64,000 nucleotides of DNA from Marinobacter lipolyticus SM19 (GTDB lineage: Bacteria; Pseudomonadota; Gammaproteobacteria; Pseudomonadales; Oleiphilaceae): NCBI RefSeq assembly GCF_000397065.2, contig NZ_KE007326.1:459689-523688 (forward strand), given 5' to 3'. Position 1 is the stretch's first letter; each line of letters opens with the position of its first letter. The translations under genes and the position numbers were made by a program. Below are positions 29,999-63,928 of this stretch, one piece after another. The notes under the pieces are model-generated. The model did not search any database and had not been told where the DNA came from. It worked only from the letters and a program-made list of their open reading frames with translations.

Positions 29999-30042
29999 GT
30001 TTTGATCTCTTGGCTGGGAGTTGCTTTTTTGACTTGGGGGCT

Positions 30043-30154
30043 GCGAGAGGGCGGGAAGGGGTGTTCAAAAAGCGCCTCAAGACGTCCCTGTGCGGCTTCG
30101 GCTCCGCCATCCATGGCTCCGCAGATTTTTGAACACCCCTTCCCGCCCTCTCGC
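30043..30154 (-). repeat. Long palindromic element, copy 1 (29-bp arms, 54-nt core)
   Basis: Perfect 29-bp inverted arms at 30043-30071 and 30126-30154 enclose a 54-nt core. Read on the minus strand, the core starts TCTGCGGAGCCATGGATGGC. It lies 44 bases before folA and would fold in the folA leader if thyA transcripts read through. Within the core, GCCATGGATGGC is itself an inverted repeat and GGAGCC occurs twice. No known IS or riboswitch family was recognised. Confidence 0.9.
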
Positions 30155-30278
30155 GACTCGACTACACAGTTAGCTGACCCGATCCCCAATAAACTAGTGT
30201 AATTATTTCAACTGAGAATTGAGTAAATGTCCCAACCCTGGCTGAATTTTCCCGATCTTCTAGCTCTGTCGTTTGATC
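30155..30278. other. Spacer between the two palindromic elements
   Basis: 124 bases, relatively AT-rich, with no supported gene. On the minus strand a folA promoter could lie here, but no convincing pair of hexamers was identified. Confidence 0.4.
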
Positions 30279-30390
30279 GCAGGGTAGCGGGTGGGGCTTT
30301 CCGAAAATCTGCGGAGCCATGGATGGCGGAGCCGAAGCCGCGCATGGATGCCTTGAGGCGTTTTTCGGAAAGCCCCACCCGCTACCCTGC
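30279..30390 (+). repeat. Long palindromic element, copy 2 (29-bp arms, 54-nt core)
   Basis: Perfect 29-bp arms at 30279-30307 and 30362-30390 around a 54-nt core on the plus strand. The core matches copy 1 at 49 of 54 positions. The arms match those of copy 1 at only 18 of 29, yet all 11 differences are paired within each copy. It starts 36 bases past the thyA stop, so it could also end or stabilise thyA transcripts. Its orientation is opposite to copy 1. Confidence 0.9.
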
Positions 30391-30426: not shown

Positions 30427-31266
30427 TCAAATAGCAATGGGAGCCTTAATAACAGGATGCGGCTCATACCCCTCAAACGAGAAGTCTTCCAGCTCGTACT
30501 CGAAGATCGACTCAGGCTTCCGCTTAATAACCAGTTTAGGCAGAGCCCGCGGTTCCCGCTTCAGTTGCTCGAACACGATGTCGTCAGTCAGGTGATTCTG
30601 GTACAGATGGCAATCACCAAAGGTGTGAACGAACTCCCCCACCCCCAGATCACATTGCTGGGCGATCATGTGGGTCAGCAGCGCGTATGACGCGATGTTG
30701 AACGGCACGCCCAGGAACAGGTCGGCGCTGCGCTGGTATAGCTGGCAGGAGAGCTTGCCGTCGGCGACGTAGAACTGGAACAGGCAATGGCACGGCGCCA
30801 GCGCCATGCGGCCCTGGCGGACGTTGTCCTGGGGACCGATGGATTCGTCCGGGAGCTCTGCCGGGTTCCAGGCGGAGACGATCAGCCGGCGGGAGTTGGG
30901 TTTGTTGCGGATCTGGTCGATTAGATCGCTGATCTGGTCAACGGTGCTGCCGTCCGGGCAGTGCCAGCTGCGCCACTGCTTGCCATAGATCGGACCCAGG
31001 TCGCCGTTTTCCAGGGCCCATTCGTTCCAGATAGAAACATTGCGCTCTTTCAGCCAGTTGTTATCGGTGGAACCCTGCAGGAACCACAGCAGTTCCTGGA
31101 TGATGCTGCGTAAGTGGACTTTCTTGGTGGTGACCAGCGGGAAGCCTTGTTCCAGGTCGAAACGGATCTGGCGGCCAAAGACGGAGCGGGTACCAACACC
31201 GGTGCGGTCGCCACGGTCCAGACCGTTGTCCACCACGTCTTTCATCAGGTCGAGATAGGCTTTCAT
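30427..31266 (-). CDS. thyA: Thymidylate synthase
   Basis: Converts dUMP to dTMP using methylene-tetrahydrofolate; FolA regenerates its product. The 279-residue protein carries the catalytic Cys159 in [13 protein letters not shown], the dUMP-phosphate arginines in [15 protein letters not shown], and [18 protein letters not shown] slightly long middle segment (DDESIG region, about residues 138-152) accounts for the excess over the 264 residues of E. coli ThyA. Its start overlaps the lgt stop by a few bases (ATGA), the E. coli gene pair order. Confidence 0.97.
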
Positions 31267-63370: not shown

Positions 63371-63580
63371 CGCTAACGGCGTCGCACCTGCAAAAGTTCC
63401 TTTTATGACAAGAGGTTACAGGCGAAGACTCGCCAAGAGGGGCAAATTACGAAAAAGAAAGACAGAAAAATCAGTCACCTGCAAAAAGAACTGCAGATGA
63501 AAAATGAGGTTTAAGATTTTTTGGCTATAAAGGACGCAGTCTGAGAAGGATAAGCATCAGATGGTCAGGGGAAAAAGAAA
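63371..63580. other. Intergenic region between mraZ promoter and rnpB
   Basis: About 210 bases, A-rich, with no supported open frame or RNA. The rnpB 3' end and its T-rich trailer lie at its right edge. Confidence 0.5.

Positions 63581-63928
<348 letters not shown>

What the first reader, a model, noticed from the sequence alone, without database searches (positions are those of the whole stretch)
30043..30390. Two long palindromes with a shared core but covarying, copy-specific arms between thyA and folA
Both elements have exactly 29-bp perfect arms and a 54-nt core (112 bp in all). Cores match at 49 of 54 positions. Arms match at only 18 of 29, and all 11 differences are compensated in the partner arm, so pairing is preserved while sequence drifts. 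The copies lie in opposite orientations 124 bases apart. An ordinary insertion sequence or MITE would have conserved ends and a variable middle; here the middle is conserved and the ends vary. Possible explanations are a structured RNA or ssDNA element, a REP-like mobile unit processed by a host enzyme, or arms repeatedly made perfect by template switching.
Basis: seen in the sequence. Interest (0 to 1): 0.8.

Follow-up and report, generated by a model that had tools for sequence, protein, structure and literature searches.

The report
Dispersed palindromic CsrA-site RNA hairpins
The two palindromes are copies of a family with about 70 members in this Marinobacter-like genome; each copy would make a long RNA hairpin carrying what look like two docking sites for the global regulator CsrA, and the nearest known relative is an RNA motif (TwoAYGGAY) that has no proven function.

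Summary
The pair belongs to a genome-wide family: 71 copies here, 103 in relative G053, with model matches in 33 of 83 genera sampled from the order. Arms are copy-specific, and pairing is supported by 596 double-change cells, reached in 0 of 500 shuffles. Most cores present two A-N-GGA-N hexaloops 23-25 nt apart on one strand, almost never on the other: the published CsrA/RsmA site. Arm mispairs are G-U in that strand far more often than A-C (46:3; 21:3 and 33:5), so selection appears to act on that RNA. Arms also change on both sides together more than RNase P helices do, suggesting DNA-level copying between arms. Nearest known family: Rfam TwoAYGGAY (RF01731), already predicted to bind CsrA; no copy here passes its cut-off (best 42.5 against 43), and only 2 of 8 over-cut-off members checked showed two such loops. 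Copies under 400 bp apart point outward (8 of 8, 14 of 14). CsrA binding, transcription and spread are inferred, not shown.

The parts
30043..30154 (-). Element copy A (arms 30126-30154 and 30043-30071, core 30072-30125); its GGA strand is the minus strand, sense to thyA-folA transcription
   Evidence: (106.3 bits); RF01731 32.9 bits on the minus strand, below cut-off
30279..30390 (+). Element copy B (arms 30279-30307 and 30362-30390, core 30308-30361); its GGA strand is the plus strand, antisense to thyA-folA
   Evidence: (111.6 bits); RF01731 38.1 bits on the plus strand, below cut-off
30109..30114 (-). Hexaloop 1 of copy A, AUGGAU, 3-bp stem GCC/GGC
   Evidence: sequence; loop statistics
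30084..30089 (-). Hexaloop 2 of copy A, AGGGAC; only two Watson-Crick pairs directly beside the loop in this copy
   Evidence: sequence
30319..30324 (+). Hexaloop 1 of copy B, AUGGAU, 3-bp stem GCC/GGC
   Evidence: sequence; loop statistics
30344..30349 (+). Hexaloop 2 of copy B, AUGGAU; only two Watson-Crick pairs directly beside the loop in this copy
   Evidence: sequence
30155..30278 (.). 124-bp spacer shared by the outward-pointing pair
   Evidence: pair geometry
30028..30042 (-). 3' flank of copy A, resembles the family's 3' flank motif (CCCCCAAG)
   Evidence: sequence; motif; resemblance judged by eye
30427..31266 (-). thyA, thymidylate synthase (upstream neighbour)
   Evidence: Pfam PF00303
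29483..29998 (-). folA, dihydrofolate reductase (downstream neighbour)
   Evidence: Pfam PF00186

Best explanation
The two palindromes are members of a multi-copy family of structured RNA elements. Transcribed on the GGA strand, each makes a stem of about 28 bp that holds up a core with two small hairpins, each showing an A-N-GGA-N hexaloop, so that one CsrA/RsmA dimer could clamp both. The stem mainly needs to pair, so its sequence is free to drift. It stays paired by two forces: selection for RNA pairing on that strand (supported by the G-U bias), and frequent copying of one arm onto the other at the DNA level, for instance while single-stranded (inferred from two-sided changes at close to the neutral rate). 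The most likely job is to bind CsrA, either as a distributed sink for CsrA or as a CsrA-sensitive segment of the transcripts that contain it; which of these is not resolved. Shown: family, structure, strand-specific bias, loop motif, copy-specific arms. Inferred: CsrA binding, transcription, function, and the arm-copying mechanism.
For: Structure: 97.2% of 2145 cells paired, 32 of 36 pairs with double changes, 0 of 500 shuffles as high on any measure, slid controls 37-46% paired. Strand: in 4129 arm pairs of 152 copies, G-U 46 against A-C 3, plus 26 other mismatches; in fixed 25-bp arms 21:3 in G000 and 33:5 in G053. Loops: 60 of 60 first loops and 59 of 60 second loops fit A-N-GGA, position 2 varying while GGA does not. 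Hexaloops with 3-bp stems on the GGA strand: two in 61 of 72 records, one in 10, three in 1; none antisense in 72 of 72; spacing 23-25 nt. Matches in other genera of the order: two in 15 and one in 5 of 20, none antisense, with the first stem replaced in several while the loop stays. The CsrA review PMC7652899 (passages) gives A-N-GGA-N hexaloops, SELEX consensus RUACARGGAUGU, mostly four or fewer stem pairs, and optimal spacing above 18 nt. The exact SELEX 12-mer occurs in 5 of 72 and 9 of 103 copies; antisense strands come no closer than 3 mismatches, shuffled copies no closer than 2. One CsrA gene is present with the L4 and R44 named in that review. Arm copying: 52 orthologous copies give 180 two-sided Watson-Crick changes against 30 G-U and 53 mismatch one-sided changes; 49 copies anchored on both flanks give 171, 25 and 35. 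The 25 least diverged give 26:6:6 against RNase P 47:54:24, p=0.0013.
Against: No transcript or binding data. In 17 of 67 classified copies in G000 and 28 of 101 in G053 both neighbours run antisense to the GGA strand, so read-through would not make the GGA RNA; yet those copies still keep two or more hexaloops (35 of 45), with a weaker G-U bias of 14:4. In the two window copies the second hairpin has only two Watson-Crick pairs beside the loop. Arms are perfect over 25 bp in only 38 of 63 scored copies in G000 and 62 of 100 in G053. Double changes are not clustered beyond position effects (50 adjacent against 44.5 expected, 31 of 200 as high), so block copying is not shown. RNase P is less diverged than the arms and its 29 comparisons share branches, an imperfect control.
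Confidence: 0.67

Rival explanations
1. A REP/BIME-like non-autonomous mobile element: an enzyme recognises the hairpin and its conserved flanks and spreads copies; the RNA features are secondary.
For: 71 and 103 dispersed copies, nearly all intergenic (2 of 72 and 2 of 103 records overlap a called gene). Close copies (<400 bp) are outward-pointing in 8 of 8 and 14 of 14 cases (partly the same sites) and in 4 of 4 in loci of other genera. Motifs are conserved just outside both arms. Presence varies at thyA-folA: 8 of 48 gaps read lack an intact copy. One site is empty in G053 and four shared sites hold a copy in the opposite orientation, one of them with an N gap.
Against: No Y1 transposase match in the genome. 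No two scored copies share more than 21 of 25 positions of one arm, so no sign of recent copy-and-paste. No target duplication (within-copy flank similarity 6.66, between-copy 6.63 with sd 0.04). 59 of 72 records are shared with G053 at the same place and strand. No match in 72,556 plasmid or 50,697 phage records to one window copy, and none in viral contigs to the exact core word.
Confidence: 0.3
2. Purely a DNA phenomenon: palindromes kept perfect by template switching, with no RNA role.
For: Two-sided changes dominate; mid-arm double-change rates reach 0.17-0.31 per pair, close to flank divergence of 0.24 per site; copies occur inverted at some shared sites.
Against: G-U to A-C asymmetry of 46:3, 21:3 and 33:5 and GGA hexaloops on one strand only point to a strand-specific, RNA-like constraint.
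Confidence: 0.1
3. A cis-acting mRNA segment (leader or 3' UTR) that controls the neighbouring gene, as Rfam types RF01731 (Cis-reg).
For: At thyA-folA a sense copy with the exact core word lies in 33 of 48 gaps read, on the folA side by eye. The upstream gene is co-directional in 40 of 67 copies in G000 and 61 of 101 in G053.
Against: All four orientations to neighbours are common (22, 18, 17, 10 in G000); orientation differs at a few shared sites; the few neighbours identified are unrelated housekeeping genes.
Confidence: 0.25
4. Bidirectional intrinsic terminators.
For: Strong stems; more copies lie between convergent than divergent genes (22 against 10 in G000, 30 against 12 in G053).
Against: Only 6 of 174 copies have TTTT within 15 nt after the stem; the conserved core is unnecessary for a terminator; 35 of 67 classified copies in G000 lie between same-strand neighbours.
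Confidence: 0.04

Closest known systems
TwoAYGGAY RNA (Rfam RF01731; listed in Weinberg 2010, PMC2864571; CsrA-binding prediction in PMC4333381)
   Same: Two A-N-GGA-N hairpins under a long weakly conserved outer stem; a GGA/GGA internal loop in hairpin 1 (54 of 60), compatible with the tandem-GA noted for TwoAYGGAY. 34 matches at E<=1 in this genome, none in 14 control genomes. Over-cut-off members are also multi-copy in several genomes, and the three close pairs (<400 bp) among them point outward (coordinates). L358 scores with both models (55.0 bits RF01731; 72.9 bits R1).
   Different: No copy here passes the Rfam cut-off (best 42.5 against 43), nor does any of 19 loci of the genus and order. 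R1 misses 6 of 8 over-cut-off loci at E<=1 and gives a seventh 13 bits. Of those 8, two A-N-GGA-N hexaloops were found in 2, one in 5, none in 1. One pair of below-cut-off RF01731 matches (G280) is tandem, not outward. At a lax threshold some microRNA models outscore RF01731 on the window copies (mir-3151 44.7 bits, also below its cut-off), showing that the long stem alone earns bits.
CsrB/RsmZ-type CsrA-sequestering sRNAs
   Same: GGA in hairpin loops, several sites per RNA
   Different: A short dispersed unit with two sites instead of one RNA gene with many; no CsrB match at E<=0.1 and no over-cut-off RsmZ match in this genome.
REP/BIME elements with RAYT transposases (PMC2817692, passages)
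   Same: Intergenic palindromes in alternating orientation, preserved pairing
   Different: No Y1 transposase, arms not shared between copies, conserved core with CsrA-like loops.

Membership tests
TwoAYGGAY (RF01731) | Two hairpins with AYGGAY-type terminal loops | tested here: met
   A-N-GGA in 60 of 60 and 59 of 60; strictly AYGGAY in 52 of 60 first loops and 34 of 60 second loops
TwoAYGGAY (RF01731) | Weakly conserved outer stem enclosing both | tested here: met
   28-pair helix, 97.1% of cells paired, 27 pairs with double changes
TwoAYGGAY (RF01731) | Score at or above the curated cut-off of 43 bits | tested here: not met
   0 of 34 matches in the genome; best 42.5; 0 of 19 further loci
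TwoAYGGAY (RF01731) | Reciprocal match of over-cut-off members to the model built here | tested here: inconclusive
   1 of 8 clear (L358, 72.9 bits), 1 weak (L357, 13 bits), 6 none at E<=1
TwoAYGGAY (RF01731) | Binds CsrA (published only as a prediction) | not testable with these tools
   Prediction read in PMC4333381 passages
CsrB/RsmZ sRNA | Match to the curated family model | tested here: not met
   RF00018 none at E<=0.1; RF00166 28.1 bits against 44, and 6 of 14 controls also ring; RsmX, RsmY and CsrC models not tried
CsrB/RsmZ sRNA | A-N-GGA-N sites in hairpin loops | tested here: met
CsrB/RsmZ sRNA | Expressed RNA that titrates CsrA | not testable with these tools
   no expression data
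REP/BIME | Cognate RAYT (Y1_Tnp, PF01797) in the genome | tested here: not met
   0 matches
REP/BIME | Alternating orientation of close copies | tested here: met
   8 of 8 and 14 of 14
REP/BIME | Many near-identical copies in one genome | tested here: not met
   best arm match to another copy 21 of 25, among 63 and 100 scored copies
MITE | Target-site duplication | tested here: not met
   within-copy flank similarity equals between-copy
Intrinsic terminator | U-tract after the stem | tested here: not met
   6 of 174

The most novel reading that the evidence does not exclude
Many bacteria of this order carry a chromosome-wide, distributed CsrA sink: in the two genomes counted, 71 and 103 copies, most with two sites, kept in working order by a cycle in which one arm of the hairpin is rewritten from the other, and laid out in outward-pointing pairs by a dispersal mechanism that uses neither RAYT nor any transposase yet identified.
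Probability: 0.25. Interest if true: 0.85.

Novelty: new variant of a known kind. Interest (0 to 1): 0.6.

Why it matters
TwoAYGGAY was listed in 2010 without a function, and a 2014 paper predicted that it binds CsrA (PMC2864571 and PMC4333381, passages). This work describes a large related clade that Rfam's model does not annotate at its cut-off, in marine bacteria with named cultured strains, gives strand-specific evolutionary evidence that the RNA is what selection sees, and finds copy numbers that could matter for the CsrA budget of a cell if the copies are transcribed. It also offers a natural system for measuring how inverted-repeat arms are rewritten from one another.

Tried and rejected
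REP/RAYT: membership rejected because no Y1 transposase is found. MITE with target duplication: not supported. Intrinsic terminator: not supported. Plasmid or phage carriage: no match. Recent duplication: no two scored copies share arms. Block-wise arm replacement, suggested by eye for L016/L287: the clustering test was not significant. Divergent promoters in the spacer: thought unlikely because spacers go down to 14 bp; no promoter scan was run. A 22-base core word also occurs in records titled Planctomycetota or relatives (L043, L061, L074, L082, L098, L115), in one titled Deltaproteobacteria (L083), and in L124 and L151, whose titles I did not see. The seven of these nine with flanks have no arms, and R1 gives the nine 19.9-25.1 bits; they are kept apart from the family.

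Rows dropped; of 181 core hits 11 lacked flank and 18 had arm scores below 15 (the seven above, one copy each with an inserted or decayed half in several loci); of 79 matches 6 were antisense readings of a copy and 1 weak match (E 0.0074) was left out, leaving 72 records; 150 of 1331 candidates were scored; of 107 matches 4 were antisense readings, leaving 103; of 72, 2 overlap a gene and 3 lack a neighbour on one side, leaving 67 classified; of 72, 59 shared, 5 with both flanks but no copy of the same strand, 2 partial, 6 with no hit among the G053 stretches fetched; 52 of 59 scored (5 with N or too short, 2 without measurable arms); three of the 52 rest on one flank only, at least one of them (C19:521351) probably not orthologous, so repeats the count without them; 9 of 72 and 3 of 103 not scored; 2 of 50 loci lacked folA on the stretch; the 50 are the 30 best plus 20 that I chose among 80 matching genomes. 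A1 holds 60 of 134 non-redundant copies; at most 33 candidates per genome were scored, so counts there are lower bounds; 29 relatives with fetched loci out of 59 matching relatives; two further matches had E above 0.1 (L213 13.7 bits, L357 13.0 bits).

Full report
WHAT IS THERE. Both palindromes are exactly as described: 29-bp perfect arms, 54-nt cores, 49 of 54 core and 18 of 29 arm matches, 11 of 11 arm differences compensated, 124 bases apart, opposite orientation, between thyA and folA (Pfam).

A FAMILY. A DNA search of the assembly with one copy gave 39 matches. A covariance model (R1) raised this to 79 matches at E<=0.01; after removing 6 antisense readings and one weak match, 72 records remain, two of which are halves of one copy at a contig break, so 71 copies. 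Only 150 of 1331 candidates were scored, so this may be a lower bound. G053, the genome most similar at thyA-folA among the 80 of the genus sampled (90% identity), has 103. Of the 80 named public loci whose titles were shown, 73 are Marinobacter; the other 7 share a 22-base word only, and those with flanks have no arms. The window's genome is taken to be Marinobacter by inference. In the order, 42 of 115 genomes and 33 of 83 genera have R1 matches at E<=0.001. Twenty such matches in loci of other genera were examined: A-N-GGA-N hexaloops with 3-bp stems number two in 15 and one in 5, and none on the antisense strand.

STRUCTURE. In 60 aligned copies 97.2% of cells form pairs, 32 of 36 pairs show changes on both sides, and 596 cells are double changes; 0 of 500 shuffles reach any of the five measures, and slid controls pair at 37-46%. 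Fixed 25-bp arms are fully Watson-Crick in 38 of 63 scored copies in G000 and 62 of 100 in G053. The core holds two hairpins. First loop: AUGGAU 51, AGGGAU 7, AAGGAU 1, ACGGAU 1; second loop: A-N-GGA in 59 of 60. The second stem covaries (CG 38, UA 18 at its outer pair). In other genera the first stem can be quite different while the loop is kept, and one copy here (L010, 567-674) has CAAAAAC/GUUUUUG around AGGGAU. On the GGA strand 61 of 72 records have two such hexaloops with 3-bp stems, 10 have one and 1 has three; the antisense strand has none in 72. In G053 the figures are 85, 15 and 3 of 103, with one antisense. Loop spacing is 23-25 nt in all but one of the two-loop copies. The two window copies have a weaker second hairpin (two pairs beside the loop).

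WHICH STRAND, WHICH MOLECULE. A pure DNA palindrome should gather G-T and A-C mismatches about equally. Observed, in the GGA-strand reading: 46 G-U, 3 A-C and 26 other mismatches among 4129 arm pairs; in fixed 25-bp arms G-U to A-C is 21:3 (p=0.0003) and 33:5 (p=4e-6). By gene context the ratio is 17:1, 15:1, 6:1 and, where both neighbours are antisense, 14:4. This indicates selection on RNA of the GGA strand, possibly weaker in the last class. A strand-biased mutation process could add to it but is unlikely to explain it all (inference). The two genomes share most sites, so the counts are not independent.

ARM COPYING. Against G053, 59 of 72 records are shared at the same place and strand, 54 with both flanks. 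In 52 of these, 1380 arm pairs include 180 Watson-Crick to Watson-Crick double changes, 30 one-sided G-U changes and 53 one-sided mismatches; 83 of the 180 cannot go through G-U. Divergence is 17.1% in arms, 7.7% in cores and 23.6% in flanks. With the 49 copies anchored on both flanks the counts are 171, 25 and 35 of 1306 pairs, 77 doubles that cannot go through G-U, and 16.2%, 6.4% and 23.1% divergence. RNase P helices in 29 relatives give 47 double, 54 G-U and 24 one-sided mismatch changes, and 196 of 2904 pairs are G-U against 46 of 4129 in the arms. The 25 copies with at most three changed pairs give 26:6:6, still different from RNase P (p=0.0013). RNase P comparisons share branches and are less diverged, so the control is imperfect. 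Mid-arm double changes reach 0.17-0.31 per pair, close to flank divergence, which selection alone would not be expected to allow (inference). Clustering of double changes was not significant. At four shared sites the copy lies in the opposite orientation: in L018/L253 the arms look homologous by eye with the core inverted, in L037/L252 and L237/L291 the arms differ, and L023 has an N gap inside the copy. One site (L010/L268) is empty in G053.

PLACEMENT. Two of 72 and two of 103 records overlap a gene called by my own script. Orientation to neighbours in G000 is 22 (+e>-), 18 (+e>+), 17 (-e>-), 10 (-e>+); in G053 30, 31, 28, 12. Copies within 400 bp of each other are minus then plus, pointing outward, in 8 of 8 and 14 of 14 cases (partly the same sites) and in 4 of 4 in loci of other genera. 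Among RF01731 matches, the three close pairs over the cut-off point outward, and one pair below it (G280) is tandem. Of 48 thyA-folA gaps read, 8 lack an intact copy and 40 have at least one recognisable copy, some interrupted or fused (L173, L188, L205); L198 keeps only part of one arm. Motifs are conserved just outside both arms, so the unit is about 140 bp (estimate). Copies also sit inside gene clusters, for example between trpD- and trpC-like genes in G053.

WHAT IT WORKS LIKE, AND WHETHER IT IS ONE. The loops match the CsrA/RsmA site as summarised in PMC7652899 (passages): A-N-GGA-N hexaloops, ACA and GGA fixed in the SELEX consensus, bridging best above 18 nt. TwoAYGGAY is listed in PMC2864571 (one passage) for human gut, gammaproteobacteria and Clostridiales, and was predicted to bind CsrA in PMC4333381 (passages). 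RF01731 gives 34 matches at E<=1 in this genome, all below its cut-off, and none in 14 control genomes. On the window copies some microRNA models score higher at a lax threshold, also below their cut-offs, because the long stem alone earns bits. Over-cut-off members occur in 13 of 274 gammaproteobacterial genomes, five of them with nine matches at E<=0.001, the number of candidates scored per genome. L358 links the two models, but R1 misses 6 of the 8 over-cut-off loci tried, and two A-N-GGA-N hexaloops were found in only 2 of those 8 (one in 5, none in 1). So the family here works like TwoAYGGAY is thought to work and shares its plan; formal membership is not claimed. Of the eight paper searches, none listed a paper that I could recognise as describing this Marinobacter family, its copy numbers, or the outward pairs; the library holds open-licence papers only, and most listings were not opened.

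VERDICT. Real, abundant and mostly shared with a relative at 90% identity, and best read as a family of RNA elements with CsrA-type sites whose DNA arms are probably also rewritten from one another. CsrA binding and the role remain untested.

Noticed in passing
L188, L205; L253 1501-1650; L233 2260-2412; also L104, L132, L149, L091, L103: Some copies carry other sequence inside a loop of the core or in place of the right half, with further hairpins (some with AUGGAC loops); no Rfam family matches at its cut-off in the seven loci scanned.
   Followed up: partly
L043, L061, L082, L098, L115, L124, L151 (also L074, L083): Records mostly titled Planctomycetota (one Deltaproteobacteria; titles of L124 and L151 not seen) share GCGGAGCCATGGATGGCGGAGC or a near form without long arms, and several have flanks similar to each other by eye: possibly a separate family with the same GGA hairpin.
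   Followed up: partly
G053 loci L309 and L292: Copies sit between genes of one cluster (trpD- and trpC-like genes; an acyl-CoA dehydrogenase cluster), alternating in orientation.
   Followed up: partly
L022, L023 (runs of N); L026 and L029 (ends of contigs C25 and C24): Assembly gaps and a contig break lie inside these palindromes; C24 and C25 end in the two halves of one copy.
   Followed up: no
L361 and L362 (G000:C19:397799-398038): Two weak, overlapping, opposite-strand RsmZ-like matches (28.1 bits, below cut-off); not examined further.
   Followed up: no
window 63578-63928 (-): RNase P RNA, class A; used as control for helix evolution.
   Followed up: yes
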